DNA of 64,000 bases, from assembly GCF_000970455.1 (NCBI RefSeq), contig NZ_LAJG01000021.1, forward strand, positions 295,645 to 359,644, written 5' to 3'. Each line of letters starts with the position of its first letter. Position 1 is the stretch's first letter. Position numbers and translations under genes: made by a program. Source of the DNA: Devosia soli. Lineage in GTDB: Bacteria; Pseudomonadota; Alphaproteobacteria; Rhizobiales; Devosiaceae. The notes beneath the pieces were generated by a model. That model was given only the letters and a program-made list of their open reading frames with translations. It ran no database searches and was not told the DNA's origin. This document shows, piece by piece, positions 49,631 to 64,000 of this stretch.

Positions 49631-50766
49631 GAATTCATCTCCTCGACGGCTGCGGTCAGCACCAGGTTGTCGCGGTGGATCAGTTCAGTCCGGCTGCCGA
49701 TCCCCAAAAGCTCGACCACCGTGCTCGAGCGCTTGCCCATGGCAAGGCGTGCGTCCTCGCTGTCGAGACCGACAAGGCCGCGGGCAATTTCGCGGCCGTC
49801 TGGATCAACGATGGCTACGGTGTCGCCACGCTCAAAATCTCCAGACACCTTGGTGACGCCGATGGGCAGGAGTGAGCGGCCCTGCTTGAGGGCGCTGGTC
49901 GCGCCGGCATCGACCTGCAGGGTGCCGGCGACGGTGAGTGTACCCATAATCCAGCGCTTTCGCGCCTGGGCACGGGAGCGGGCAGGGTGGAAAAGCGTGT
50001 GGCGGCCGCCCTCGGTCAGGGTTTTGAGCGGATGCATTTCAGTGCCCTTGGCGATGATCATGGCGGTGCCGGCAAGGGTCGCGATCTTGCCGGCTTCGAC
50101 CTTGGTTGTCATGCCGCCACGCGAGAGATGGCTCGCCGCGCCGCCCGCCATGGCTTCGATGGCGGGGGTTATGGCTTCAACCACCGGGATATGCTGGGCG
50201 TTCGGGTCCTTGGCCGGCGGAGCGGTGTAAAGACCGTCGATATCGGAAAGCAGGACGAGGCAATCGGACTCGATCATCGTCGCAACGCGGGCCGAAAGGC
50301 GATCATTGTCGCCATAGCGGATTTCAGCGGTGGCGACGCTGTCGTTCTCGTTGAAGATCGGGATGGCGCCGAGACCGAGCAGGGTCGTCACCGTGGTGCG
50401 CGCATTGAGATAGTAGCGGCGCTCCTCGGTGATGTTGGGGGTGATAAGGATCTGGCCGGTGACGATGGAATGGCGGCCAAGTGCCTCGGCCCAGGCTTGG
50501 GACAGCGCGATCTGCCCGGCGCTCGCAGCAGCCTGGGATTGTTCGAGGGTCAGCGACACGGCGGAAAGGTCGAGAAGGCCCCGGCCGAGCGCAATCGCGC
50601 CCGAGGAGACGACGACGATGTCGCGGCCCTCGGCCTTGAGCGCGGCGATGTCTTCGGCAAGATCATCGAGCCAGGCTTTGCGCAGCTTGCCGGATTTGTC
50701 GACGAGAAGGGCCGAGCCGATTTTTATGGTGATGCGCCGATAGGGGGCGAGAGCGTCGGCGCTCAT
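49627..50766 (-). CDS. proB: Glutamate 5-kinase
   Basis: ProB phosphorylates glutamate, the first step in proline synthesis. The 379-residue protein has the amino-acid kinase domain (about 1-270) with [28 protein letters not shown] and [19 protein letters not shown]-terminal PUA domain follows (about 285-365), so it is the full-length two-domain form. The start ATG 50766 overlaps the obgE stop by the ATGA arrangement; an in-frame ATG four codons earlier is possible. Confidence 0.95.
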
Positions 50767-51812
50767 CAGGGCGTCCACTTCTCTTCCGTGGTTGCCTTGC
50801 GCTCGACTTCCAATTCCTCGGCGCGGCTTTCGTCGATGATGGCGAGCACATCGTAGAGCACCTGCTCGACGCCTTCGCCGGTGGCGCCGGAAATGGCGCG
50901 GACATCGGCCTTGCTGACTTTCTTGAGGGCCTTCATCTTGGCCTTGAGCTCTTCGGGGGTCAGCGCGTCGACCTTATTGAGCACAACGATTTCGGGCTTT
51001 TCGGCAAGGATGTCGGCATAGGCGGCAAGCTCATAGCGCACAGCCTTATAGACATGGGCCACGTCTTCATTTGTGCCGTCAATGAGGTGGATGAGGACGC
51101 CACAGCGCTCGATATGGCCGAGGAAACGATCGCCGATGCCGATGCCTTCGCTCGCTCCTTCGATGAGGCCGGGAATATCGGCAAGCACGAATTCGCGCTC
51201 ACCGACGCGGACGACGCCAAGATTGGGATGCAGCGTTGTGAACGGGTAATCGGCGATCTTGGGCTTTGCCGCGGAAACGGCTGCGAGAAAGGTCGACTTG
51301 CCGGCATTGGGCTGGCCCACGAGACCGGCATCGGCGATCAGTTTGAGGCGCAGCCAGATGCCTTTTTCGATGCCCGGCTGGCCGGGATTGGCGTGGCGTG
51401 GCGCCTGGTTGGACGACGTCTTGAAATAAGCGTTGCCGAAGCCGCCATTGCCGCCTTTCAACAATACGACGCGCTGGCCGACTTCGGTGAAATCGGCGAC
51501 CAGGGTTTCCTGGTCTTCCTCGAAGATCTGGGTGCCCTTGGGCACGCGCAGGATAATGTCTTCGCCATTGGCGCCGGCGCGGTTCTTGCCCATGCCGTGG
51601 GTGCCGGTCGGCGCGCGAAAGTGCTGAGCATAGCGGAAGTCGATGAGCGTATTGAGTCCATCGGCGCAAACCGCCACGACATCGCCGCCGCGCCCGCCAT
51701 TGCCGCCATCGGGGCCGCCGAATTCGATGAATTTCTCACGGTGAAAACTGACGGCACCACCGCCGCCATCGCCGGACTTGATGTAGATCTTGGCTTGATC
51801 GAGAAATTTCAT
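50766..51812 (-). CDS. obgE: GTPase Obg/CgtA
   Basis: Obg is an essential GTPase in ribosome (50S) assembly and stress control. The 348-residue protein has the glycine-rich Obg domain ([33 protein letters not shown]). The GTPase G1 motif is GQPNAGKST, with [12 protein letters not shown] (G3) and NKVD (G4). The start at 51812 matches the family N-terminus; the open frame extends upstream without homology. It overlaps the neighbouring GNAT gene by four bases. Confidence 0.96.
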
Positions 51813-52348
51813 GTGCGTCGTGCCTTCCAGACGCCGAGCGTCAATTGTGTGTCGATATGCTCCACCTCGACGCCGCGCGCAAGGCAGAGCAGCCAGGAGC
51901 GCCCGGTTTCGGCAAAGCCGAGTCGCCGCTGTATAGCCAGCGAGGCGCCGTTGAAATGAAAGACGCCGGAATAAACGACCGGCGCCCGAGAAACCGCAAA
52001 GAACCAATCAAGGCACGCGATCGCCGCTTCGGTCATGATCCCCCGACCCCAAAAGGGCTTTCCGAGCCAGTAGCCGATCACCGGACCATCCTGGGCTGGA
52101 TGAAAGCCGATATGGCCCACATAGCCTTCGCCTTTCAGCTCGATGCAGAAATTGGCGTCATCGACCATGGTGTCGGGATGACGCGTCCTGAGCCAGGCGC
52201 GGGCATCGGAGAGATGGTATGGAAACGGCACGCGCGCAAGATTGCCGGAGACGGCGAAATCGTTGAGGTAATGTGCGATCGGCTCGGCATCCTGAGCGCG
52301 CGGGGCGCGCAGGATCAGGCGTTCGGTTTCGATGATGGGCAGGATCAT
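51809..52348 (-). CDS. GNAT family N-acetyltransferase 1 (RimJ-like)
   Basis: The 179-residue protein begins [24 protein letters not shown] and has [33 protein letters not shown], the acetyl-CoA loop of RimJ/RimL-like enzymes. The start at 52348 overlaps the next gene's stop (ATGA). It is one of four consecutive, co-directional GNAT genes between rpmA and obgE. They share the TERLILR opening and the LGYWLGxPxWGxG-type motif, so they derive from one ancestor. Likely targets are protein N-termini or small molecules; no substrate can be named. Confidence 0.88.
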
Positions 52349-52869
52349 CGGCGCCACTCCAGAACGAGAAGCGGCTTGCCGCGATGTCGCTCGACGACGC
52401 TTTCGGTGCGTTCTATGACGGCGAAGCCGGTTTTTTCCAGGACGCGCTGCGAGGCGGGATTGGACGCGAGGACGCGGGCGCGGATGATTTCCATGCCAGC
52501 GTCACCGGCTGCGGCGAGCAGGCCCGTGACTGCCTCGGGCGCAAAGCCCTGACCCCATTGGGGTTCGCCTATCCAGTAGCCGAGCTCGGGCGGATTTTCG
52601 GCGCTGAATTTCAGCCCCACGATGCCGATCAGCCGGTCGTCGTCCTGCCGGGCGATGGCATAAGGCCGCTGCTCTGGCTTTCTGGAAAACCGTTCGATGA
52701 ACCCGATGCCGTGCTCGGGCAGATAGGGGAATGGCAGGCTCGCCGTCGGCTCGATCACCTTCCAGTTGTTGACGCCCTCGACGAGGGCATCGAGGTCGCT
52801 CATGACGGGCTGGCGAAGGCGCAAGCGCGACGTGATGATTTCGCTGGGCAACGCATCTCTCAGGCGCAT
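52345..52869 (-). CDS. GNAT family N-acetyltransferase 2
   Basis: The 174-residue protein has SRLRLRQPVMSDLDALV at the start and PPELGYWIGEPQWGQGFAPEA, the acetyl-CoA-binding loop, near residues 95-115. It is the second member of the GNAT cluster. Its end overlaps the start of the first member by four bases. Sequence identity between cluster members appears moderate, so they probably have different substrates. Confidence 0.87.
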   Translation of the reverse strand: MRLRDALPSEIITSRLRLRQPVMSDLDALVEGVNNWKVIEPTASLPFPYLPEHGIGFIERFSRKPEQRPYAIARQDDDRLIGIVGLKFSAENPPELGYWIGEPQWGQGFAPEAVTGLLAAAGDAGMEIIRARVLASNPASQRVLEKTGFAVIERTESVVERHRGKPLLVLEWRR

Positions 52870-53387
52870 AGATCGGTCCTTCTCATGCTCCAGGCGGCGC
52901 GGGTCAATTCGGTCGTGACGTGCTCGACATTGTGCTGCAGCGCCTGGGAAAACCGCATATCTTTTCCCGTCGTCACAAAGCCGAGTCTTGCCTTGAGGCG
53001 CAGCGAAGCCACGTTGTTTCGGTGTGCGCTTGAACGGATCGATGCGTTTTCAGTCTCGCCGAAATGCCAGTCGATCAGGGCGGTGGCCGCCTCGAGCGCG
53101 TAGCCGCGATGCCAATGAGGCCGGGCGATCCAGAAGCCGAGTTCGTTGACGAGGGTGACGCAGCCGATCAGCCCCTTGGTTCGATGCTCGACGATGAAGA
53201 AGGCTTTTTCAGGCGTCGGCACGGGCGCGTTGCGCAGAAAATCGCGCGCCATGGTGAGCGTATAGGGCCAGGGCACCGGCGTCAGCCATTTGGCGACGGC
53301 GAATTCGCTGACGCCAAGGGCGTAGCAGGGGGCATCTTCCGGGCGCGGGGCGCGCAGGATCAGCCGATCGGTCAGGAGTTCGGTCAT
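52860..53387 (-). CDS. GNAT family N-acetyltransferase 3
   Basis: The 175-residue protein starts [25 protein letters not shown]. It has the loop ELGFWIARPHWHRGYALEAATALI, a slightly altered acetyl-CoA motif (HWHRGYALEA). Its end overlaps the second member by 10 bases. It begins with the same TxRLILRAP opening as the others. Confidence 0.87.
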   Translation of the reverse strand: MTELLTDRLILRAPRPEDAPCYALGVSEFAVAKWLTPVPWPYTLTMARDFLRNAPVPTPEKAFFIVEHRTKGLIGCVTLVNELGFWIARPHWHRGYALEAATALIDWHFGETENASIRSSAHRNNVASLRLKARLGFVTTGKDMRFSQALQHNVEHVTTELTRAAWSMRRTDLCA

Positions 53388-53917
53388 CTCTCGCTAAACT
53401 CCAGCCGCATGAGCATCACAGCCTGGCCCTTGAGCGTGCCGTCCTTGTCTTTCGATTCTCCGATCTCGGTAAAACCGAGCTTTTTGAGGACATTGCGCGA
53501 ACCGGAATTGGAGAGGAGCGTGCGTGATCTGAGGGCCGCCGCCCCGGCCGCTCGCGCCGCGTCGACGACGGCTCGGCCCGCTTCGGTGGCGATGCCCTGG
53601 CCCCAATGGGGTTCGCCAAGCCAATAGCCAAGCTCGGGTAGCTCGCCGGGAAGAAGATGCAGCCCCATCGTGCCGACATAGTCGCCGTCGCGCAGGATCG
53701 ACCAGGCAAATTCGGTCTCGCCCCGCGCAATCTCCATTACGAAATGCTCGCCGTCCTTTTTTCCGTAAGGATGGGGCAGGCGCGAGAGCACTTCATGAAT
53801 GCGTTTGTTGTTCGCCAGCTTCGCCATTTGAGGAACATGAGCCATCGCGGGGGTGGCCAAGACCAGGCGCTCGGTGGTCAGCGTCGCGGGCAGGCGGTCC
53901 TTGAGGGCAGTCATCAT
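53384..53917 (-). CDS. GNAT family N-acetyltransferase 4
   Basis: The 177-residue protein has TTERLVLATPAMAHVPQMAK, FAWSILRDGDYVGTMGLHLL and the acetyl-CoA loop LGYWLGEPHWGQGIATEAG. Two ATGs (53917 and 53914) follow a TGGAG site. A larger open frame runs upstream through the terminator of rpmA, which argues against an earlier start. It is the first of the cluster in transcription order. Its end overlaps the third member by four bases. Confidence 0.88.
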   Translation of the reverse strand: MMTALKDRLPATLTTERLVLATPAMAHVPQMAKLANNKRIHEVLSRLPHPYGKKDGEHFVMEIARGETEFAWSILRDGDYVGTMGLHLLPGELPELGYWLGEPHWGQGIATEAGRAVVDAARAAGAAALRSRTLLSNSGSRNVLKKLGFTEIGESKDKDGTLKGQAVMLMRLEFSER

Positions 53918-53931
53918 GTTTCTCCAGAAGC

Positions 53932-53965
53932 GAAAAGGGGAACCGGCTGACCGGTCCCCCTTTGC
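53932..53965 (-). terminator. Terminator after rpmA
   Basis: On the minus strand a 13-bp stem with one mismatch (AAAGGGGGACCGG and CCGGTTCCCCTTT) closes a 4-base loop and is followed by TCGCTTC after TTTT. It lies between rpmA and the first GNAT gene, so rplU-rpmA and the GNAT-obgE run may be separate units with some readthrough. Confidence 0.78.
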
Positions 53966-54032
53966 AGTTCTGGTTTGTCGCCAAACGCCGCCGGGGAACT
54001 GGGTCACCGGCGGGTTGGTCAGGCCTGCCGGG

Positions 54033-54299
54033 TTATTCGGCGGCCTCTGCCGGGAGGACAGACACGTGTACTTTATTGTTCGCGCGGGTGCGGAACGCCA
54101 CGGTGCCATCGACCAGAGCATAGATCGTGTGATCCTTGCCCAGGCCAACACCGGTGCCCACGGCCCAGCGCGTGCCGCGTTGACGGATGATGATGTTGCC
54201 AGCGATGACGGCTTCGCCACCGAACTTCTTCACGCCGAGACGACGGCCAGCGGTATCACGACCGTTGCGGGATGAACCGCCTGCTTTCTTATGTGCCAT
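54033..54299 (-). CDS. rpmA: 50S ribosomal protein bL27
   Basis: The 88-residue protein has [24 protein letters not shown], the conserved bL27 N-terminus, and IIRQRGTRW plus the [14 protein letters not shown] segment. No N-terminal extension is present, so no processing by a Prp-like protease is expected. It lies 14 bases after rplU; the pair is almost universal. The downstream terminator supports an rplU-rpmA unit. Confidence 0.97.
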
Positions 54300-54313
54300 G
54301 GTCTAGCTTCCTC

Positions 54314-54868
54314 TTATTCCTGATCGGCCTTGGGAGCGGCCTTTTTGGCCGGGGCCTTCTTCGGCTTGTCAGCCGTTTCGCCTTCAGCGGCAGCGGCCTT
54401 GGTCTCAGCCTTCTTGGGCGCAGCCTTCTTCGGCGCGGCCTTGGCTTCGGTCGTTTCCGAAGTGGCATCTTCTGCCTTGGGGGCCGACTTCTTGGCCGGG
54501 GCCTTTTCGCTCACGGAATCGGTGGCTTCGCTCTTGGCGGCAGCCTTGATCGTCGGCTGGGCGCCGCCGGTCAGGATTTCCGTGATGCGGACGGTGGTCA
54601 GCAGCTGGCGGTGACCGTTGCGGCGACGCGAATTGTGGCGGCGGCGCTTCTTGAAGATGATGACGGTCTTCTGCTTCTTGGTCTCGACCAGCTCGGCAGC
54701 AACGAGTGCGCCTTCCACCAGCGGAGCACCAATCACGTCGCCAACCATGAGGACTTCGTCGAAAGTGACGATGTCGCCGACGGCAGCGTCGAGCTTTTCG
54801 ATCTTGAGGACGTCATTGGCAGCAACCTTATACTGCTTGCCGCCCGTCTTGATGACTGCAAAAGTCAT
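54314..54868 (-). CDS. rplU: 50S ribosomal protein bL21 with long Lys/Ala/Glu-rich C-terminal extension
   Basis: The first ~103 of 184 residues form bL21 ([37 protein letters not shown], which is the RNA-binding part, and [10 protein letters not shown]). After that come about 80 residues of Ala, Lys, Glu and Pro that resemble disordered histone-tail-like sequence, with repeats of [11 protein letters not shown] and PAKKAAPKA type. Such extensions occur in alphaproteobacterial bL21, but E. coli bL21 is only 103 residues. The ATG at 54868 begins the conserved domain; an in-frame upstream ATG would add 23 residues. Confidence 0.95.
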
Positions 54869-55142
54869 ATGCACAACCGAACGTTTTTTCGCGCCCGGTC
54901 CCTTTTCTGTCGCGCCCTGCGGCACCGCAGCTTTCATGCCAGCTTTTTCGCGGTTTTTACGGATGTAGGTCAGTTATCTGACCGGCAGCCTCGAGCAGCG
55001 TTTTCAAACAAAACCAGCGCACAGGTGGGACCGGTGCGCGTGGGATCGGGGGCTTATCGTGAAAAAGGGGCAAAGAGTCAAGCGCCGTCTCGAGCCGTTC
55101 TGCCCTCTCTCCGATACGGCAAAACGGCTCCAGGTCCTTATT
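54869..55142. other. Leader region upstream of rplU, with an inverted repeat
   Basis: No gene is visible between rplU and the dispersed repeat. GAGCCGTT (55092-55099) and AACGGCTC (55123-55130) form an inverted pair with a 23-base loop. The rplU-rpmA promoter should lie here, but no motif was clear. Confidence 0.5.
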
Positions 55143-55194
55143 TGGTCGCGCTTTCGAACCGCAAGAGTGGTGTCCACTTTTGCTGAGAACGCTC
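55143..55194 (+). repeat. Dispersed Rhizobiales-type intergenic repeat, copy 2
   Basis: This 52-base copy shares its first 20 bases (TGGTCGCGCTTTCGAACCGC) with the atpD-atpC copy, and has the inverted pair around AGAGTG / CCACTTTTGC. It differs by several substitutions and one inserted base. It lies between rplU and the MBL-fold gene. Confidence 0.8.
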
Positions 55195-55219
55195 CGGTAT
55201 TCGACGGCGCTTGCAGGGG

Positions 55220-55999
55220 TCAGCCCTGGCCGTTGGGATACCAGTTGCGCAGGCGCACTTCGGTGTGGTCGCCGACGCCGGTTTCAAGCGGGGAGAGATC
55301 GCTCTCGCCGTAATGGTAGGGATAGACGGTGCCGGGCTTGAAGGTGTTGATGGCTTCGACGGCCTGGTCGGGCGTCATGGTATAGGGCAGGTTCATGGGC
55401 AGGAAGGCGACGTCTATGTCCTTGAGCGCCAGCATTTCCTCGGTCGGCTCGGTGTCGCCGGCGACATAGACCTGCTTGTCGCCGAGGGTGAGAACATAGC
55501 CATTGCCGACGCCGACGGGGTGGTAATTCATGCGGTCGGCGGTGGTGTTGTGGGCGGCGATGGCCTTGAGCTTTACGCCATCGAGTTCACCGTCTTCGCC
55601 GTTGGCAATTGATTTGGCATTGGCCTTGAGGCTTTCGGGAAGTTTGTCGAAGACGTCCTGATTGGTGAGCAGCGGAACAGAGCCGGCGATGGCTTCGAGC
55701 GTCGGCACGTCGAAATGGTCGCCATGGCCGTGGGTGATAAGTATAGCGGTCGGCTTGGGGAGGCTTTCATAAAGCGCGGCGCCGCCGACGGGATCGACAT
55801 AAATGACCTTGCCGCCCCATTCGAGCACGAGGCTCGCATGTTCGACCGGATGGATGACGAGATCGCCTTCGCTGGTGGCGATAGTTTCAGGCATGGCGGC
55901 TTCCTGAGCAGTGGCAGGGGTCGGAACCAGGACTTTGGCGGCGAAGCCGGCTATTGGCAAGCTGGCAAGACCGGCAACCACGGAGCGGCGCGTGAACAT
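55220..55999 (-). CDS. Exported MBL-fold metal-dependent hydrolase (UPF0173-like)
   Basis: The 259-residue protein has a signal peptide of Tat type (TRRSVVAGL at 3-11, then a hydrophobic core to about 32). The metallo-beta-lactamase motif HGHGDHFDVPTLE is at about 89-101, a second histidine sits in AIAAHNTT, and YVAGDTEPTEEM carries the metal-bridging Asp. Late family blocks are MNLPYTMTPDQAVEAI and PYHYGESD. It resembles UPF0173 proteins, hydrolases of uncertain substrate, but with an export signal. The start ATG 55999 follows GGGAGAA. Confidence 0.85.
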   Translation of the reverse strand: MFTRRSVVAGLASLPIAGFAAKVLVPTPATAQEAAMPETIATSEGDLVIHPVEHASLVLEWGGKVIYVDPVGGAALYESLPKPTAILITHGHGDHFDVPTLEAIAGSVPLLTNQDVFDKLPESLKANAKSIANGEDGELDGVKLKAIAAHNTTADRMNYHPVGVGNGYVLTLGDKQVYVAGDTEPTEEMLALKDIDVAFLPMNLPYTMTPDQAVEAINTFKPGTVYPYHYGESDLSPLETGVGDHTEVRLRNWYPNGQG

Positions 56000-56203
56000 G
56001 GAGTTCTCCCTCAAATGTGACAAGCTTTGACGGAACCACAACGCAGGCTCGTCTCGATAAGATCGCGCAGCACGAGATTGTTATCGGCGGGTGCGTTTCT
56101 GCACGGCGGGAGAAGAAGAGGTGTTGCAGCCTTCCGCCCACTATGCCATAAGCCGCCCCGTATCGACCGGCCGGGAGCTTTAGCGCTCCTTTTTCGATCT
56201 CGC

Positions 56204-56293
56204 GGAGAGATGGCAGAGCGGTTGAATGCACCGCACTCGAAATGCGGCATAGGGGCAACTCTATCGGGGGTTCGAATCCCTCTCTCTCCGCCA
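56204..56293 (+). tRNA. tRNA-Ser(CGA)
   Basis: The acceptor stem GGAGAGA pairs with TCTCTCC. The anticodon arm CCGCA-CTCGAAA-TGCGG gives anticodon CGA. A long variable arm follows, as in all tRNA-Ser, then the T arm GGGGG-TTCGAAT-CCCTC with a small mismatch, and an encoded CCA. Length 90 bases. It reads the Ser codon UCG. Confidence 0.95.
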
Positions 56294-56408
56294 GTTTTCC
56301 TTCCAAATCCTTGAAGCCGTAGAAAACCTGGTATTCCCGGGCAAGCAGACGCTAGGCCTTGCTTATTTTGGACTTCTTCCACTGCCATTTCCATCGTTCG
56401 CCGCACCT

Positions 56409-56660
56409 GATCCCATCTCAGCGTCACGCGGACTTGGCGCTCAGATGGCCGTTCTCGAAGATGGCCGATACTGTGGATATGTTTCGGGAGGATGCGTCGA
56501 AGCTGCGGTCGCCTCAGAGGCGATGCGCGCCATCAGCGCCGGACAGGACGAAATTCTCAGATTTGGTACCGGCTCGAAATTCATCGACGTTCAACTGCCG
56601 TGCGGCGGTGGCATTGATGTGCCCAGGACCGCCGATATCGCCTCCCGCAACACTGCATAG
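56409..56660 (+). pseudogene. XdhC family fragment
   Basis: The frame reads SRGLGAQMAVLEDGRYCGYVSGGCVEAAV, then FGTGSKFIDVQLPCGGGIDV, the conserved N-terminal part of XdhC/CoxI proteins, which insert or sulphurate the molybdenum cofactor of xanthine dehydrogenase. The N-terminal about 20-30 residues before the GAQM block do not match the family. After CGGGIDV homology stops and a stop codon follows within 15 residues; the C-terminal two thirds are missing. No xdhA or xdhB gene is nearby. It starts 116 bases after tRNA-Ser, a place often used by mobile DNA, which may explain its arrival. Confidence 0.75.
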
Positions 56661-56714
56661 TCGCGATCGATCCTGACCTGGCGGGTGCGACGCAGAGCGT
56701 TGCCACGGAGGGCA

Positions 56715-57590
56715 CTAAGTTCGTGGAGGACAGGATTCGGGATAAGCCATGGCCCTTTGGGCCAGATCGGCATAGTGCGCCATCTCGGCGGCACACCAAT
56801 GCTCGAATTCGTCAACGACCTCTTCCGTCACCCGGAATTCCTGGGGGCCGCATGCCAGCAGAGCTCGGACCTGCCGCATATGGCCGAGCACGTTACCCAC
56901 ATGCGACTCCGAAACCTGGAAGCGCTCGGCAAGGGCGCCGTGGGTCAGAGATATCCCCTCCTTGCCAGCCGCACGTCGATAGTGGCTGAGCATCAAGGCC
57001 GCCAGCAGTGGATAGCCGCTATCGTAACCGGCCAATCGCAGTACCGTTGGAAACTCGGCAATAACGGTACCTGCCCCTTGCACCCGGGCCGAAGAAAGAA
57101 AGATCATCTCGCCCAAAATGCCGGCATCCTGTTCGAATGGCAGCGCGAGAGCGCTCCCGGCGACGAGGTCGTGGGCCTGAACGAACGCGGCGCAGGACCG
57201 GCCAACCTCGCGGATCAGGCGCTCGGCGGGCCGCAGGACTTTCTGCCGTCTGTCGGCTTGGAGTGTTTCGATGCTGATGAGGTTGCGCGTTTGCAGCATC
57301 CTGCAGAACGAGGCCGTGTGTCGCGGACTTTGGCCGGATATGGCCTGTAACCGCGAGAGATTGGGCACGGCAGCGCCGTGGTTCCGCCAGCCGTAATATT
57401 GCCCGATCAGCATATAGGCCGAGTAGTAGCGCTCAAGTTGATTGAGCAGCTTGCGCAGGGGCCATCCTGCGGGTGCGGGCTCGGCCATCTTCTCGCAATA
57501 TTGCGCCAGGCTTTGGCGAAAGCGAGCATCGGCCACGATTGCCGACGCCTCCATGACGTTTGCCGTGCCCGGTGGAAGCGTTCTCTTCAT
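56715..57590 (-). CDS. Putative two-wHTH transcriptional regulator, divergent from the autotransporter gene
   Basis: I do not recognise the family of this 291-residue protein. Two segments look like winged-helix DNA-binding units: NLSRLQAISGQSPRHTASFCRML (with a following RRQKVLRPAERL wing) and LTHGALAERFQVSESHVGNVLGHM near the C-terminus. A helical linker of about 80 residues separates them. It points away from the autotransporter gene with an intergenic gap of about 105 bases, the usual layout of a regulator and its target. The start is uncertain (57623 GTG, 57590 ATG or 57554 ATG; none has a good ribosome site). Confidence 0.6.
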   Translation of the reverse strand: MKRTLPPGTANVMEASAIVADARFRQSLAQYCEKMAEPAPAGWPLRKLLNQLERYYSAYMLIGQYYGWRNHGAAVPNLSRLQAISGQSPRHTASFCRMLQTRNLISIETLQADRRQKVLRPAERLIREVGRSCAAFVQAHDLVAGSALALPFEQDAGILGEMIFLSSARVQGAGTVIAEFPTVLRLAGYDSGYPLLAALMLSHYRRAAGKEGISLTHGALAERFQVSESHVGNVLGHMRQVRALLACGPQEFRVTEEVVDEFEHWCAAEMAHYADLAQRAMAYPESCPPRT

Positions 57591-57695
57591 CGACAAAATC
57601 GGCAAAGTTTGGGGTGGCAGCACTTTAGCGGGCCGGCCAGAACTATCAACCTTGGCGCAAGGCGTGCCTTCCGACGAAGCTGATAGAGTGATTTC

Positions 57696-60600
57696 ATGAT
57701 CGCACGACTAAGGGGGACCAAAGCGGCTTCGAGATACTGCCTAGCCTCTCAGCCGTCTCGGGATGTGCCATGCCGGGCGAGGGTGAAGCGCATTGGCGGG
57801 GCTGTTCTCGCCCGTCTCATTCCTCTGCTTTTCGCTTGGCTTTTCGTGGTCGCGCCGTCCCTGGCGCAGGTTACCCTGGCACCAGCGAGCCTTCCCAATT
57901 CTACGGCCGGCGCGCCCTATCATCAGGTGTTCTCCGTCCTCGGTGGCACCCCGCCCTACATTGTCTCGCTTGCCGGCCCCCTTCCCGCCGGGATGACATT
58001 CTCCGGCGCGGCTCTGTCGGGGACGCCAACCGAAAGTGGCACATTCAACTTCAGCGTGTTTGCTTCCGACTTCGTCGGAGCGACGGATTCGAACAGCTAT
58101 ACTCTGACTGTCGGAGCACCCACGATCGCCATATCACCGGCCAGCTTGCCCGCAGGAACTGCCGGATCGTCATATTCGCAGAGCCTGTCGGCTTTCGGTG
58201 GCACCGCACCCCATAGTTTCTCTATTTCCGGCGTATTGCCCTCCGGTATCACCTTGACGCCGACCGGATTGCTATCGGGCACCCCGCTTGCCGCTGGATC
58301 CTACACATTTTCCGTCATCGTCACGGATTCCACCACGGGAAACGGCCCGCACACGGCGTCGATTTCTCAGACGCTGGTGATCGCTGCCCCCAGTGTGATC
58401 CTCTCGCCAACATTGCCCGATGCAACCGTCGGTCAACCCTATGCGCAGATGATTTCGGCGTCCGGCGGCTCGGCTCCCTACACCTTCAGCCTCGATTCCG
58501 GCGCACTTCCCGTCGGGCTCGTGCTTGGGCCCGATGGATCGATTTCGGGGACGGCAAAGGAAGATGGCACGTTCAGCTTCACTATCTCCGCCCAGGATTC
58601 GACCGCTAGCACCCCAATCACTGGCTCCCAAACCTATAGCCTCAACGTCGCGCCCCCCACCGTTGCCCTTTCACCCGCAAGTCTGCCGGACGGGCGGGCT
58701 GGCGCTCCCTATTCGGCAGCCGTTGCCGCAAGCGGGGGAACTGCGCCTTACACCTACACCGTCACTGGCACGCTGCCACCAGGCGTCACGTTATCCCCCT
58801 CCGGCCTCCTGTCGGGTACGCCAACCGAGAGCAACCTCTATTCCTTCACCGTCACGGCCACGGATTCAAGCGGTGGAACAGGGCCTCATTCAGGTGCACA
58901 GAGCTACAATATCGTCACCTATTCGCCGAACTTCACCTTGTTGCCCGATGACCTGCCGGTGGCGACGGCGGGTCAGCCCTATTCGCAAACGGTGGTCGCC
59001 GGCGGCGGGACCGCGCCCTATACCTATTCCATATATGCAGGCGCTCTGCCGGCCGGCTTGACCTTCTCGGGCGGAACTATTTCGGGCACCCCGACGGCGA
59101 TAGGCTCGTTCTTCGTGACCATCATTGCCAGAGATTCAACCACCGGCCCAGGCTCGCCCTATGCCGTGGGGCAATACTTCCCGCTGATCGTTGCTGCCCC
59201 CACGATAGCTTTGACCCCCGCGACCCTGCCGGCTGCCAATTCAGGATCCTTCTATTCCCAGACGCTGTCGGCCAGTGGCGGCGCGGCGCCCTACACTTTC
59301 GCGCTCTCTGCGGGCAGCCTGCCGCCCGGGTTGACCCTCTCCACCTCCGGAACCCTGTCCGGGACGCCATCGGCGCCCGGAAGCTTCAACTTTTCCGTCA
59401 CGGCTACGGATGGGTCGATCGGTGTCGGCCCGTTTTCCGCTACGCAGGCCTATAGCCTGAGCGTCGGCGCCACCGGCCGGCTCGTTGTCGCCGTGCGGTC
59501 CAATGTCGACGGCACTTTCGGTTTTAGCTCACCCGAGCCTTTGCTGAACGCGCTCACCGTCGGAACGACAGGCGGCATGGGTCAGAGTGGCGCGATCAAC
59601 CTGCCCGCCGGTTCCTTCCGGATAACCGCAGACGACCTTAGCGGGGCTGGCACAGCACTGACGGCCATCAGCTGTGACGACAATGACAGCAGCGGAGACA
59701 TCACTACAAGCTCCGCAAACATTGCGCTCGATGCTGGCGAAAGCCTGACCTGCACCTTCACGTTCCTCAATTCCCGGGAGGAGACTACGGGGCTCATCGA
59801 AGACTTCTTCGCAACGCGGGCTTCGCTGATCCTTGCAAACCAGCCGCGCTCGGACCGTCGCATCGACCGTCTGAATGGCATTGCGCCACGGGGCGATATC
59901 GGCTCAGCGCTCATGACCTATCTGCCGGCACTTGCCCGTGGAAGCGCGCTGCAGTCGTCCATCAGCCTCAGTGCCATCGAGGGTGCGATTGGCCTCGAAA
60001 ATCCCAATCCGTTCGACATCTGGATGGAAGGGACCTTTGTGCGCCTTGATGCCGCCCGCGACGGCCAGCTCGTGCTGGGCAGCGTGGGAGCGGACTATCT
60101 CGTCACCACCGACCTTCTCGTCGGCGGTTTTGTGCAACTCGATCACGCCGTTCAAGGCCTGGCCGGGTTGCCAGGATTTGCTTCCGGCGCTGGCTGGATG
60201 GCGGGTCCCTATGCGACCATGCGGCTGCACGAAAATCTCTATCTGGACGTGCTGGCCGGCTTTGGACGTTCCAGCAACAGCATCAATCCTCTCGGGTCTT
60301 ACGAGGACCGGTTCGGAGCAACGCGCTGGATTCTCAGCGCCGCCCTCGAAGGACAATGGGTTGCCGGCCCCTGGACCTTCTCCCCGCGCGCCAGCCTTGG
60401 CTATTTCGCGGAGACCAGCGATGCCTATCGTGACGCACTGGACATTGCCATACCCTCCATTGCCATGCATGTCGGCCAGATTGCGATCGGCCCTGCCGTG
60501 TCCTATCGCCTCGTTGCGGGCGAGGTTGTGATGACTTTGGGACTGGGGCTCGAGGGGGCAGCCGAATTCAGCCCAAATCTTGGTTTGGAAAATGGTCAGG

Positions 60601-60737
60601 CGCGCCTCAGGGCCAGCGTCAATGCTACCTCGCCGCGCGGCGCTGATATTGGCCTTACAATCGGTCTTAATGGGATCGGCAATGATGCCGGGACTGTCCT
60701 AAGCGTCTCTGGCCGCCTTGCAGTGCCAATGAAGTAG
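57696..60737 (+). CDS. Autotransporter-like outer-membrane protein with six putative-Ig (He_PIG) repeats
   Basis: The 1013-residue protein has a signal peptide (hydrophobic core about 36-55, SLAQ end), then six repeats of about 85-90 residues near 59, 142, 233, 321, 411 and 502. Each has the LPxxxxGxPYSQxxxAxGGxAPYTF strand pattern and GxLSGTPT turn of putative-Ig (He_PIG) domains. A distinct beta domain follows (594-692) with two Cys, then a C-terminal region of about 290 residues (720-1013) shaped like a type V autotransporter barrel. The last residues are AVPMK rather than the usual aromatic end. ATG 57696 and GTG 57783 are both possible starts; the latter begins the signal peptide directly. 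Likely an adhesin. Confidence 0.82.
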   Translation: MIARLRGTKAASRYCLASQPSRDVPCRARVKRIGGAVLARLIPLLFAWLFVVAPSLAQVTLAPASLPNSTAGAPYHQVFSVLGGTPPYIVSLAGPLPAGMTFSGAALSGTPTESGTFNFSVFASDFVGATDSNSYTLTVGAPTIAISPASLPAGTAGSSYSQSLSAFGGTAPHSFSISGVLPSGITLTPTGLLSGTPLAAGSYTFSVIVTDSTTGNGPHTASISQTLVIAAPSVILSPTLPDATVGQPYAQMISASGGSAPYTFSLDSGALPVGLVLGPDGSISGTAKEDGTFSFTISAQDSTASTPITGSQTYSLNVAPPTVALSPASLPDGRAGAPYSAAVAASGGTAPYTYTVTGTLPPGVTLSPSGLLSGTPTESNLYSFTVTATDSSGGTGPHSGAQSYNIVTYSPNFTLLPDDLPVATAGQPYSQTVVAGGGTAPYTYSIYAGALPAGLTFSGGTISGTPTAIGSFFVTIIARDSTTGPGSPYAVGQYFPLIVAAPTIALTPATLPAANSGSFYSQTLSASGGAAPYTFALSAGSLPPGLTLSTSGTLSGTPSAPGSFNFSVTATDGSIGVGPFSATQAYSLSVGATGRLVVAVRSNVDGTFGFSSPEPLLNALTVGTTGGMGQSGAINLPAGSFRITADDLSGAGTALTAISCDDNDSSGDITTSSANIALDAGESLTCTFTFLNSREETTGLIEDFFATRASLILANQPRSDRRIDRLNGIAPRGDIGSALMTYLPALARGSALQSSISLSAIEGAIGLENPNPFDIWMEGTFVRLDAARDGQLVLGSVGADYLVTTDLLVGGFVQLDHAVQGLAGLPGFASGAGWMAGPYATMRLHENLYLDVLAGFGRSSNSINPLGSYEDRFGATRWILSAALEGQWVAGPWTFSPRASLGYFAETSDAYRDALDIAIPSIAMHVGQIAIGPAVSYRLVAGEVVMTLGLGLEGAAEFSPNLGLENGQARLRASVNATSPRGADIGLTIGLNGIGNDAGTVLSVSGRLAVPMK

Positions 60738-60959
60738 GCTCAGGTGTAGGCGATTGCATAGCGCTGATCGGACTGGAGAATGACGCGAAAAATAGGTGCG
60801 CGGCGAGAGCAGTTGCGCGATGCACGTGCCGCGAGGAGATCGGATCATTCAGCGCCTAAGAAGGAGCCAGCCATGGGCCGCATGACACCCGGTTGCTGGC
60901 CCTCGCGCCACCACGCTCGCAGCAATTCGAGAGCATGGCGTTGCCGCCTTTTTCCTTCT

Positions 60960-61859
60960 TCAATCCTGATGAGCAGGTGGGTACGAAACGAAAGCCAATC
61001 TCCTGCTGTCAGGCGCCCAGGAATTGACGTTGATCGTTCCCTGTCCACCGAAAAAAGCTGCAAGATCAGTCTGTTCGGTGCCGCTGGGGGTCATCAGGCG
61101 AAGCAGGACGTGCTTGTCGGGTGGGTGGCCGATCGTGTCCTCGGGGTAGCTCAGGAAGGCGACATGGCGGCCATCGGGTGAGATGTGAGGGAACCAGTTG
61201 ACGCGGGTGTCGAAGGTCAATTGTTCAATGCCCGTGCCATCCGGCTGCATGCGGAAAATCTGTGCGTGGCCGGGTTTTTTGGCTGATAATTCGGAGTTGA
61301 AATAGATCCAGCGACCGTCGGGGGAATATTCCGGGCCGTCATTGGGCACGGTCACGTCGGTGAGGCGGGTGTCGGGTCCACCGGCTGCGGGAATGGTGAA
61401 AATGTTAACCTTACGTTGCCCTTGAGGCGCTTCAACCGCCACATAGGTTAGGGTTTCGCCATTGGGCGAAATGCCGTGGAGATAATAGTGATGCGGCGTC
61501 GGGTGCGCGTTGGAAACGCGGCGCGGTTCACCGCCATCGAAGGGCACGGCGTAGAGATGACCATCATCGGAACTGACATAGATCGTCGCCCCGTCCGGCG
61601 AGAGGACGTGATCGTTATTGAGATCGTTGAGACCACTTGTTGGGATGTGCTCCGGGCTGCCGCCTTCGGGACTGATCCGGAACAGCTGGCCACCGGCATT
61701 GAAGACCAGCCATTGCCCGTCGGGCGACCAGTTGGGGGCTTCGATGACCTCGTCGGCAGTCAAGACCGTGCGGCGATCGCCGTATAGGTCGATGACTTCG
61801 AGCACGGCCTTCTGGCCGGGAGAAAGCGTGCGGCCGCGGCGGGGGAAGGAATAGCTCAT
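60960..61859 (-). CDS. TolB-like beta-propeller protein
   Basis: The 299-residue protein is made of WD40-like PD40 repeats: APNWSPDGQWLVFNAGGQLFRI, VLSPDGATIYVSSDDGHLYAVPF, GPEYSPDGRWIYFNSE and PHISPDGRHVAFLSYPED. This is the six-bladed propeller seen in TolB and in the N-terminal part of prolyl oligopeptidases. There is no signal peptide and no catalytic domain, so it is not TolB itself. It lies 11 bases after the end of the broken cupin gene on the same strand and is the only intact member of that apparent operon. Confidence 0.85.
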   Translation of the reverse strand: MSYSFPRRGRTLSPGQKAVLEVIDLYGDRRTVLTADEVIEAPNWSPDGQWLVFNAGGQLFRISPEGGSPEHIPTSGLNDLNNDHVLSPDGATIYVSSDDGHLYAVPFDGGEPRRVSNAHPTPHHYYLHGISPNGETLTYVAVEAPQGQRKVNIFTIPAAGGPDTRLTDVTVPNDGPEYSPDGRWIYFNSELSAKKPGHAQIFRMQPDGTGIEQLTFDTRVNWFPHISPDGRHVAFLSYPEDTIGHPPDKHVLLRLMTPSGTEQTDLAAFFGGQGTINVNSWAPDSRRLAFVSYPPAHQD

Positions 61860-61870
61860 GCTCTGGTCTT

Positions 61871-62423
61871 TCAGCTATCGAGATTGTCGCGAAAATCGTT
61901 AAGGCCGGCTTCGACCGATGACGGCGCGTCGATCCACTCCTGCATGGCATTGCCAGTGGCAGGATCGTGGGTGGGAATCGGCAGCATCATGATGCGCTTG
62001 GCCGCGGCGCGGAAGCCGGCATCGTCGAGCCGGGCTTCCTCGATATTGTCCCAGTCACGGCCATCGGGGTAGCCGCCGACCATCATGACGTCGTCCGAAT
62101 GGTCGACCATGATGTGGGAAACGCCAGCGGGAAGGACGATGACGTCACCGGCCTCGACACGGACGCGCACCCCGCCATCATCGAAAAGGACAACATCCAT
62201 CCAGCCGCGGGCGCAGCCGAGGCATTCGTGGGTGGTCGAATGAAAATGGGCATAGGTATAGACGCCGGGATAGCGCCAGTTGTTGAGCCAGCCATTTTGG
62301 CGGAAGCGCGCGATCAGCGTCTTCACTGCCGCCAGGCACGGCGCTGCGGTGCACGAGGAGCGGAAAGCGGGAATTGGGGACGAAGCCATTCGGCTTTGAC
62401 CAAAGGAGTTCGGTTTCCATCAT
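61871..62423 (-). pseudogene. Cupin domain (YjlB-like) gene with a frameshift
   Basis: The correct N-terminus (METELLWSKPNGFVPNSRFP...GGSEDAD, from ATG 62420) is in one frame. The rest (RFRQNGWLNNWRYPGVYTY, AHFHSTTHECLG, VLPAGVSHIMVDHSDD) continues in another frame from about 62305 to the stop at 61871. Both halves match the YjlB-like cupin family, so one frameshift in or near 62299-62318 splits the gene. The cupin metal ligands (HFHSTTHE and H of SHI) lie in the second half. The ATG overlaps the stop of the upstream UPF0303 fragment. Could be a sequencing error rather than a mutation. Confidence 0.78.
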
Positions 62424-62620
62424 TGTGCTCCCCGAGTGGTTCTGATCCGGCGCAAGGCATTGGCGACAAGGCCATGGTCTTCTTTATCGGGCAAGCCGCT
62501 CACCGAAGCCGCACCGACAACGCCGATACCCCTGACTGCAATTGGTACACCGCCCGCGCTTGCTGCGAAATCCTCGCCAATCACCCGGATTGTCGTGCCC
62601 GGTGACGATGTGACCGGCAA
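62420..62620 (-). pseudogene. C-terminal fragment of a UPF0303/heme-degrading-domain protein
   Basis: The minus-strand frame ends with IGEDFAASAGGVPIAVRG, VVGAASVSGLPDKEDHGLV and ANALRRI, which fit the last third of UPF0303 family proteins. The upstream part of the same frame is antisense to the VOC remnant and shows no such homology, so the N-terminal two thirds are lost. Its stop overlaps the start of the cupin pseudogene (ATGA), showing that the two were once an operon. Confidence 0.65.
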
Positions 62621-62649
62621 AGCGCCGGAGTTCGGCGGCAGGATCGGCG

Positions 62650-62896
62650 CCGCGCCGGCGAGCTGGCACACCAAGGGCACGACCCGTAGGTGCTGGACGA
62701 TCGATGATCTCGACGCAACGTGCGAGCGTATCGAAGCGGCAGGGATCACGCTTCTGAGCGAACCAAGGCTGGTTTTGACGATAACCGCCGGGCCTAGCTT
62801 GAAGATCCGGATGGCAACCGCATTCAATTGATGGAAATGCATCCAGATTGCTTGCAATATCAGGCGATACGCCGTCTTCACGCCGAAGGCGTCTAG
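62650..62896 (+). pseudogene. C-terminal fragment of a VOC/glyoxalase-family protein, frameshifted
   Basis: One frame reads IDDLDATCERIEAAGITLLSEP, and shortly after, in another frame, LEDPDGNRIQLMEMHPD leads to a TAG at 62894-62896. Both are standard blocks of the last half of VOC metalloenzymes (DPDGNRIQLME is the typical end). A shift of frame near 62795-62805 separates them. The N-terminal half is missing, cut at the place where the opposite-strand UPF0303 fragment also ends. Confidence 0.65.
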
Positions 62897-62927
62897 TCAC
62901 CAGAGGGTCCGGTTCATTTTACCGCCC

Positions 62928-63077
62928 ATGCATTCGATTGTTTTGCCGGTGCCGTCTCGATCGAGCCATCATATTGCCAACGCTGGTCTGCGGCGGGGCG
63001 ACATGCCGGAGCCGAGGGTTACCATGATCGATCCGGAATTGATCGTGCGCGACAGTACGGCGGGGGGCGGGGTCTGA
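62928..63077 (+). pseudogene. Probable C-terminal remnant of a LacI-family regulator
   Basis: A 49-codon frame ends with RRGDMPEPRVTMIDPELIVRDSTA, which resembles the last residues of LacI/PurR-type repressors (the PxLIVRxSTA ending). Nothing of the DNA-binding or sugar-binding domains remains. It lies 40 bases before the alcohol dehydrogenase frame, where a LacI repressor of a sugar/polyol operon would be expected. The match is short. Confidence 0.5.
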
Positions 63078-63117
63078 CGGCAGGCCAAAACGCCCGGTTT
63101 TTGAGGAGGAGCCGAAA

Positions 63118-64000
63118 ATTCTAAGCGTTGAAATCACCGGCCTGCGCGACGCAAAGCTTGCCGAGCATCCGGACCCACAGGCCAAGGGCGATGTGGTCAA
63201 GGTCGAAATCCTCGTCGCGCCCATGTGCACCGAGTGGCAATCCTGGCGCGCCGGCAAGGAGGGCCATGAGCTGGGGCATGAAGCCGTCGGCAGAGTGATC
63301 GATGCCGCTGCCTCGACCCGCTTCAAGGTGGGCGATCGCGTCATCGCCATGCCGCATTGGGGATGCGGCAAATGCCCGGCCTGTCTTTCGGGCGAGCATA
63401 TCCATTGCACCGATCAGCGAAATATCCTGGCAGAGACTGGATCGAGCTGCGGGCTGGGCGGTTATGCCGATCATCTCATCAAGCCCGATTACCTGCTTTA
63501 CCCGGTTCCGGACGATATCGAAACCGACCACGCCGCCATGGCGCTATGTGCCCTGGGCCCGAGTTTTACGGCGATGGAGCGCATGCGGATTTCGGCGTCG
63601 GACACGCTCGTCGTTTCGGGCTGTGGCGCGGTCGGACTTGGCGCCATCGTCAATGCGCGGACGATCGGCGCGCGTGTCATTGCGCTCGAACTCAACCCGT
63701 TCCGGATCGAACTGGCGAAAGCGCTTGGCGCCGAGCATGTGCTCGACCCGCGGGCGCCCGACATTGTCGAAGAAATCCGCGCCTTGACCGGCAGCTATGG
63801 CGCGGATGCGGCGATCGAGACCAGCAATAATGACGCCGCGCCACCGGTCGTCCTGGAACTGGTGCGGGCCCGCGGGCGGCTGGCCTTCGTCACCTGGAGC
63901 GGCGCCTTGCCGGTCAACCGCATCACCGGAAAAGGCATCGACATTTTTGGCTGCTGGCACTGGAACCACGACCAGGCAGGCGATCGCATGATGGACCGCG
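63118..64000 (+). CDS. Zinc-dependent alcohol dehydrogenase, partial, without a standard start codon
   Basis: The frame from 63118 to the window edge encodes a medium-chain Zn dehydrogenase. The catalytic-zinc Cys is in APMCTEW (about residue 37), HELGHEAVG carries the GHE motif, and WGCGKCPACLSGEHIHC holds the four structural-zinc cysteines. SGCGAVGLGAIVNARTIGA is the NAD(P) site. No ATG, GTG or TTG lies in frame at the expected start: a strong GAGGAGGAG ribosome site is followed 6-7 bases later by ATT CTA AGC GTT, which would be MLSVE if ATT (63118) initiates. The next possible start (a GTG about 25 codons in) would cut the first zinc-domain strands. The gene runs off the window. Confidence 0.8.
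   Translation, partial: MLSVEITGLRDAKLAEHPDPQAKGDVVKVEILVAPMCTEWQSWRAGKEGHELGHEAVGRVIDAAASTRFKVGDRVIAMPHWGCGKCPACLSGEHIHCTDQRNILAETGSSCGLGGYADHLIKPDYLLYPVPDDIETDHAAMALCALGPSFTAMERMRISASDTLVVSGCGAVGLGAIVNARTIGARVIALELNPFRIELAKALGAEHVLDPRAPDIVEEIRALTGSYGADAAIETSNNDAAPPVVLELVRARGRLAFVTWSGALPVNRITGKGIDIFGCWHWNHDQAGDRMMDR

What the first reader, a model, noticed from the sequence alone, without database searches (positions are those of the whole stretch)
61871..63120. A run of decayed genes: UPF0303, cupin, VOC and LacI remnants, next to an ADH without a start codon
Within 1.25 kb four broken genes can be read on both strands. Two minus-strand genes (UPF0303 end and frameshifted cupin) still overlap by ATGA as in a former operon with the intact TolB-like gene. 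Two plus-strand remnants (VOC and LacI-like) lead into the ADH. The cut ends of the UPF0303 and VOC fragments lie within about 30-40 bases of each other, as if one deletion joined two divergent catabolic operons. A LacI regulator, VOC, cupin and ADH are the parts of a sugar/polyol or aromatic catabolic locus being lost.
Basis: partly seen in the sequence, partly recalled or inferred. Interest (0 to 1): 0.72.

Follow-up and report, generated by a model that had tools for sequence, protein, structure and literature searches.

The report
Conserved AUU start beside wrecked locus
The broken genes are the wreck of a spare copy of a metabolic gene cluster that lies with open reading frames elsewhere in the same Devosia genome, and the dehydrogenase beside them is not start-less through decay: it begins with ATT, as 23 of 24 close relatives (itself included) do, and this ATT is likely a weak AUU start codon that gene-finding programs miss.

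Summary
The same genome carries the locus with open frames on another contig (84-86% identical); Devosia sp. Root685 has it too. TolB-like and ADH still look protein-constrained.

Not decay: the "ADH without a start codon". Codon 1 is ATT (63118-63120) in 23 of 24 DNA-checked ADHs of at least 72% identity, from Devosia, Rhizobium and another family. A Shine-Dalgarno motif precedes it in 23 of 23. In 12 of 12 distant homologues that column is ATG or GTG. Codons 2-35 evolve as protein. The isomerase gene downstream starts with ATG in 20 of 20 loci. Public records start this ADH at codon 26 or 36.

Likely mechanism: a conserved weak AUU start, disfavoured by IF3, holding ADH low relative to its operon partner. 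IF3 control, low yield and the ratio role are untested. New member of a known kind (infC, pcnB, cvfC1).

The parts
60815..60981 (-). Remnant of a tyrosine recombinase of the kind that accompanies an IS91-type transposase; abuts the 3' end of the TolB-like gene at the left edge of the locus
   Evidence: Aligned with 6 copies in other Devosia genomes; in one of them the frames are Phage_integrase PF00589 and Zn_Tnp_IS91 PF14319. The remnant itself gives no Pfam hit
60960..61859 (-). TolB-like (PD40 propeller) gene, open, 299 aa; left edge of the locus
   Evidence: dN/dS 0.06-0.08
61871..62423 (-). Cupin gene with a frameshift near 62316
62420..62575 (-). C-terminal remnant of the UPF0303/HbpS-like gene
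   Evidence: family of the Root685 orthologue
62565..62661 (-). Two scraps of the xylose-isomerase-like TIM-barrel gene, with the junction of the 6.7-kb deletion near 62650
   Evidence: family of the other copies
62652..62896 (+). C-terminal remnant of the VOC gene, frameshifted near 62761
62897..63077 (+). VOC-LacI intergenic stretch joined near 63000 to the last 24 codons of LacI
63104..63109 (+). AGGAGG Shine-Dalgarno motif, 8 nt before the ATT
63118..63120 (+). ATT: predicted AUU start codon of the ADH
   Evidence: ATT in 23 of 24 DNA-checked ADHs of at least 72% identity
63118..64000 (+). Zinc-dependent dehydrogenase (MDR superfamily), open for 294 codons up to the contig end
   Evidence: dN/dS 0.07-0.10

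Best explanation
The stretch is the wreck of a second copy of a likely sugar-catabolic locus whose other copy lies with open frames on another contig of the same genome, and the dehydrogenase beside it keeps a conserved ATT that is predicted to act as a weak AUU start codon. Wreck (shown by alignment): deletions and frameshifts hit UPF0303, TIM-barrel, VOC, LacI and cupin genes, removed the ABC transporter, aldo-keto reductase and the stretch between the divergent operons, and left TolB-like and ADH as open edge genes. Start (position shown by comparison; use inferred): the 30S subunit would bind the AGGAGG motif and start at the AUU with initiator tRNA, giving an N-terminal Met. IF3 would disfavour the AUU, so ADH would be made at a low rate that depends on IF3, while the isomerase gene downstream in relatives starts with AUG. 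The weak start would thus set the ADH:isomerase ratio. IF3 dependence, low yield and the ratio role are untested.
For: Second copy with open frames; same locus in Root685. ATT at codon 1 in 23 of 24 ADHs of at least 72% identity; ATG (11) or GTG (1) in that column in 12 of 12 distant homologues. SD 5-8 nt upstream in 23 of 23, before the codon-36 ATG in 0 of 23; no other in-frame ATG/GTG/TTG position before codon 36 is shared by more than 5 of 23; codons 2-35 dN/dS 0.205 over 10 pairs, against 1.95 and 3.07 in the other frames. Isomerase downstream in 19 of 20 ATT loci with downstream DNA; it starts with ATG in those 19 and in Stagnihabitans. Model pLDDT 96.7 with strands at 2-8, 11-16 and 26-35; 50 of 50 listed solved chains align over model residues 1-334. 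Analogy for IF3 control: sigR, PMC5472188 (passages); cvfC1 AUU, PMC13009471 (passages).
Against: One relative of 78% identity, Stagnihabitans tardus, has ATG, and 12 of 79 database proteins of at least 66% identity start with Met at that column, 4 of those tested lying inside the ATT group of the tree; so ATT is not indispensable. Strict codon identity across the 23 is not unique: 4 of 144 invariant-residue columns show it. Codons 2-35 are less constrained than codons 36-290 (dN/dS 0.205 against about 0.09). Pfam does not separate the long from the short start (ADH_N 57.3 against 56.3 bits), and sequence matches to solved chains begin at residue 15 or later. No expression or protein data exist here. 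The window ADH's operon promoter region is deleted, so it may be silent.
Confidence: 0.8

Rival explanations
1. The ADH lost its start codon as part of the decay and is a pseudogene.
For: It lies next to real pseudogenes and its operon's promoter region is deleted.
Against: 22 other ADH genes with open frames, among them those of C7 and Root685, have the same ATT; the frame is open for 294 codons with dN/dS 0.07-0.10.
Confidence: 0.03
2. Translation starts elsewhere: at GTG codon 26, at ATG codon 36 as in public annotation, or at lineage-specific codons upstream, and the ATT is an ordinary Ile codon or leader.
For: Three annotated Rhizobium plasmid records start at codon 36; a Root685 database protein starts at codon 26; the codon-36 ATG is present in 23 of 23.
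Against: No SD before codon 36 in 23 of 23; upstream and other downstream candidates are scattered, at most 5 of 23 for any position; codons 2-35 are under protein constraint; a start at 36 would drop strands 2-8, 11-16 and 26-35; residue 36 is Met or Leu also in the distant homologues that start with ATG at column 1.
Confidence: 0.08
3. AUU is the start but is a frozen accident: no selection keeps it and IF3 plays no role.
For: 4 of 144 invariant-residue columns are as conserved at codon level; some relatives have Met at the column; no conserved RNA structure in 5 of 5 leaders folded.
Against: ATT makes up 70 of 366 Ile codons after codon 1 in these genes, and the five other invariant Ile columns change 3-6 times on the tree; a return to ATG needs one base change yet is absent in 23 DNA-checked genes; the neighbouring isomerase keeps ATG in 20 of 20.
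Confidence: 0.3
4. The broken frames are assembly or sequencing artefacts near a contig end shared by two repeats.
For: Contigs C14 and C7 end in the same ADH codon with 126 shared bases before the last base, and C4 and C6 end in the isomerase with 127 shared bases.
Against: The remnants differ from C7 at about 14-16% of bases, so they are not mis-joined C7 reads; deletions of kilobases are not base errors; Root685, another genome, has a relic of its own with other breakpoints.
Confidence: 0.04

Closest known systems
infC and pcnB of E. coli (AUU starts)
   Same: AUU as chromosomal start codon; for infC, IF3 acts on its own AUU (PMC5472188 passages; PMC1780047 passages; the original papers seen only as references)
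   Different: Here a dehydrogenase of a catabolic operon; IF3 control not tested
cvfC1 (AUU) and ccpN (AUA) of Staphylococcus aureus, PMC13009471 (passages)
   Same: Conserved non-canonical start with a strong SD, found by comparison
   Different: There shown by ribosome profiling and reporters to lower yield, and conserved within staphylococci; here shared by more than one family, by sequence only
sigR of Streptomyces (GTC start), PMC5472188 (passages)
   Same: Weak start under a strong SD in an operon, mis-annotated to a canonical codon nearby
   Different: GTC, a sigma factor, with IF3 repression and partner ratio shown by experiment
Borrelia burgdorferi pncA (AUU start), PMC13398362 (abstract)
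   Same: Metabolic enzyme with an AUU start whose database entry is truncated
   Different: A single-species case there; the dehydrogenase here is unrelated
L-threonine 3-dehydrogenase and other zinc-dependent MDR enzymes
   Different: 131.6 bits against a cut-off of 458.35: not a member of that equivalog

Membership tests
Conserved AUU-start genes (infC/pcnB/cvfC1 kind) | AUU at the position homologous to the start codon | tested here: met
   ATT in 23 of 24 close relatives; ATG/GTG in that column in 12 of 12 distant homologues
Conserved AUU-start genes (infC/pcnB/cvfC1 kind) | Strong SD and no usable canonical start instead | tested here: met
Conserved AUU-start genes (infC/pcnB/cvfC1 kind) | Translation begins at the AUU in the cell | not testable with these tools
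   Needs proteomics or ribosome profiling
IF3-repressed weak starts (infC, sigR) | Yield falls with IF3 and rises with a canonical start | not testable with these tools
   Inferred by analogy
Zinc-dependent MDR dehydrogenases | ADH_N and ADH_zinc_N domains over Pfam cut-offs | tested here: met
   Window fragment 56.0 and 83.0 bits against 23.5 and 31.8
L-threonine 3-dehydrogenase (TIGR00692) | Curated cut-off 458.35 bits | tested here: not met
   131.6 bits, Root685 orthologue
UPF0303/HbpS-like (NF002696) | Curated cut-off 146 bits | tested here: met
   162.6 bits for the Root685 gene; the window has only a remnant
TolB of the Tol-Pal system (TIGR02800) | Curated cut-off 343.15 bits | tested here: not met
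   86.3 bits, Root685 orthologue: TolB-like propeller only

The most novel reading that the evidence does not exclude
A catabolic dehydrogenase has kept an IF3-gated AUU start across genera and families of Hyphomicrobiales, on chromosomes and plasmids: a translational dial that ties ADH output, relative to its AUG-started isomerase partner, to the cell's free IF3, and which annotation has hidden by cutting 25-35 residues off the protein.
Probability: 0.45. Interest if true: 0.75.

Novelty: new member of a known kind. Interest (0 to 1): 0.58.

Why it matters
[quoted passage not shown] In a survey of 61,358 reconstructed AUG starts, 1 had switched to AUU (PMC5622118, passages). An AUU start shared across genera, with an ATG-started neighbour as a built-in control, makes the question whether such starts are selected directly testable in laboratory strains. 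It also shows how a start-less looking gene beside real pseudogenes can be misread as decay, and it points to truncated public entries that lack three strands of the predicted fold.

Tried and rejected
Rejected: (1) ADH decayed at its start: the ATT is shared. (2) Start at codon 26, codon 36 or upstream. (3) A conserved RNA structure at the start: z-scores -1.04 to +1.35 in 5 of 5 leaders folded (5 of the 23). (4) Window copy as a recent duplicate of C7: 84-86% identical, no closer than either is to Root685. (5) Filing the ADH as threonine dehydrogenase or the TolB-like gene as TolB: below cut-offs.

Led nowhere: a model from 13 sequences, pLDDT 39.8, redone with 76; Pfam on the Root685 stretch C4:185938-190410 read in one frame, no family; class-wide search, only the own genome among 385; paper searches pairing this start with Devosia, Hyphomicrobiales or conservation (0 papers; 1 paper, on translational GTPases). 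That I know of no paper on this start rests on the listings, in an open-licence library only.

Full report
Setting. The window is G000:C14:295645-359644 and ends at the end of contig C14.

The wreck. DNA of 61500-63200 matches a second place in the same genome, contig C7. There and in Root685 the locus has open frames (C7's ADH is cut by the contig end). In Root685 one operon runs permease, permease, ATPase, solute-binding protein, second VOC, xylose-isomerase-like TIM barrel, HbpS-like (UPF0303), cupin, TolB-like; divergently, aldo-keto reductase, VOC, LacI, ADH (the cupin reaches only one of two Pfam cut-offs). Against these the window lacks about 361 bp inside UPF0303 (C7 9644 to 9283), about 115 bp inside the TIM barrel, about 6.7 kb from there into VOC (C7 9055 to 2307) and about 1 kb of LacI (960 bp by Root685), and has frameshifts in cupin and VOC. 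The junctions show matches of only a few bases; I claim no deletion mechanism. 'Sugar' rests on the transporter, LacI and isomerase families and is inferred.

Age and constraint. The three copies are about equally distant (window-C7 84-86%, window-Root685 85-89%, C7-Root685 85.6-86.1%), so the window copy is not a fresh duplicate. By ADH protein the window copy groups with Root685, C7 outside (100/100, then 99/90). dN/dS is 0.06-0.08 for TolB-like and 0.07-0.10 for ADH; for the in-frame part of the cupin it is 0.09-0.10 in window pairs against 0.045 for C7-Root685. That fits relaxation of the cupin only, on small counts (5-13 nonsynonymous changes). Root685 has a relic of its own at C1:1102374-1103124: LacI pieces, a UPF0303/cupin piece and, by my reading of the sequence, the first ADH codons fused to the last ones, beside an open isomerase. 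Copies of this locus have thus broken down at least twice.

The ADH start. I collected 36 ADH frames: genus search (13 loci in 12 of 75 genomes), family (the same 12 of 136), order (5 of 397, two of them new), class (only the own genome, of 385), genus and family of G402 (2 of 14, 2 of 28), named genomes (27 loci) and plasmids (4 records). Ten of the 27 named loci repeat genomes already in the set (L050-L057, L060, and L059 = L077) and were counted once. That leaves 24 frames of at least 72% identity and 12 of 41-51%. Codon 1 is ATT in 23 of the 24; Stagnihabitans tardus has ATG. In the 12 distant ones the column is ATG (11) or GTG (1). The 23 are 13 loci of the Devosia genus group, 2 of another family (f15: Mesorhizobium sp. 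BR1-1-16 and G509) and 8 Rhizobium or Rhizobiales/Rhizobiaceae records, four of them plasmids.

Tests of the start. (a) A GGAG-type SD lies 5-8 nt upstream in 23 of 23 and none before the codon-36 ATG in 23 of 23. (b) In-frame ATG/GTG/TTG between the upstream stop and codon 35 are scattered, none in more than 5 of 23. (c) Over 10 chosen pairs codons 2-35 have dN/dS 0.205, against 1.95 and 3.07 in the other two frames; codons 36-70 and 71-290 have 0.093 and 0.088. Codons 2-35 are thus translated, though less constrained. (d) The predicted fold of the Root685 orthologue (76 sequences, pLDDT 96.7) has strands at 2-8, 11-16 and 26-35, and 50 of 50 listed solved dehydrogenases align over model residues 1-334, several from their own residue 1. 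Pfam does not discriminate between long and short starts, and sequence matches to solved chains begin at residue 15 or later. (e) A TIM-barrel isomerase gene follows the ADH within about 100 bp in 19 of the 20 ATT loci with downstream DNA (window, C7 and L064 end too early; Root685 keeps only a scrap), also in Stagnihabitans, and in 0 of 12 distant loci. It starts with ATG in 20 of 20. The ATT is thus a property of the ADH, not of the operon.

Is ATT itself selected? Ile codons after codon 1 in the 23 genes are 281 ATC, 70 ATT, 15 ATA. On a DNA tree the five other invariant Ile columns need 3-6 changes each and codon 1 none; but 4 of 144 invariant-residue columns need none, so this alone is about a 3% event. 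In a protein tree of 59 rows the 23 ATT rows and 9 rows with an internal Ile at column 1 fall in one group of 36 (support 87/84, so not firm), with ATG or Met rows branching before it and 4 Met rows inside (P0007 with P0051, P0030, P0034); P0034 sits next to an ATT gene and may be an annotated ATT start. One gain and a few returns fit best.

Annotation. Three of the four plasmid records have gene tables, and 3 of 3 start this gene at codon 36. Among the 120 best listed of 362 database relatives, 12 of 79 of at least 66% identity start at column 1, 21 at residue 14, 17 at residue 36 and 10 upstream with Ile at column 1; of 41 at 48-59%, 29 start at column 1 and 5 one residue later (recounting).

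Mechanism. IF3 repression of a non-canonical start, and a weak start lowering one operon partner, are shown for sigR (PMC5472188, passages); a conserved AUU with strong SD and reduced yield for cvfC1 (PMC13009471, passages). By analogy I infer that AUU keeps this ADH low and IF3-dependent. The own genome's infC frame offers an ATT after GAAGGA as its likely start, which would link IF3 level and ADH; that is inference from one sequence.

Contig ends. Window and C7 ADHs are 79-84% identical in five blocks of 126 bp, then 94%, then 100% in the last. Contigs C4 and C6 end at isomerase codon about 142 with 127 shared bases, and my two searches did not find the stretch between. Gene conversion between the copies, with collapse of the identical tract in assembly, would explain this; assembly error alone is not excluded.

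Noticed in passing
window 63874-63999; L027 2-127; L100 end; L101 end: Both copies' contigs break inside ADH and both continuing contigs inside the isomerase, with 126-127 shared bases at each side: probable gene conversion tract or assembly collapse. The C6 isomerase copy is frameshifted.
   Followed up: partly
window 60815-60981: Recombinase remnant of an IS91-type element at the left edge of the locus; full-length relatives in other Devosia genomes carry Phage_integrase and Zn_Tnp_IS91 domains.
   Followed up: partly
window 50000-60737: In Root685 the left flank lies on contig C4 in two blocks of opposite orientation, away from the catabolic locus on C1: a rearrangement breakpoint near the locus edge.
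   Followed up: partly
L095 4261-5124 (Root685 C1:1102261-1103124): A second, different relic of the same locus in Root685, beside an open isomerase gene, while its main locus keeps only the start of that isomerase: complementary losses.
   Followed up: partly
L083 (own genome C14:37183-37389 and flanks): infC of this Devosia also offers ATT as its likely start (GAAGGA, 9 nt, ATT).
   Followed up: no
L045, L046, L047, L048, upstream of the ADH: A short inverted repeat of the type CTCAC...GTGAG lies upstream of the SD in this subgroup (by eye); possible operator.
   Followed up: no
L029 886-6058; L079 11482-18671: Iron or siderophore uptake genes lie beyond the ADH side of the locus in Root685 and on the Rhizobium indicum plasmid; may be coincidence.
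   Followed up: no
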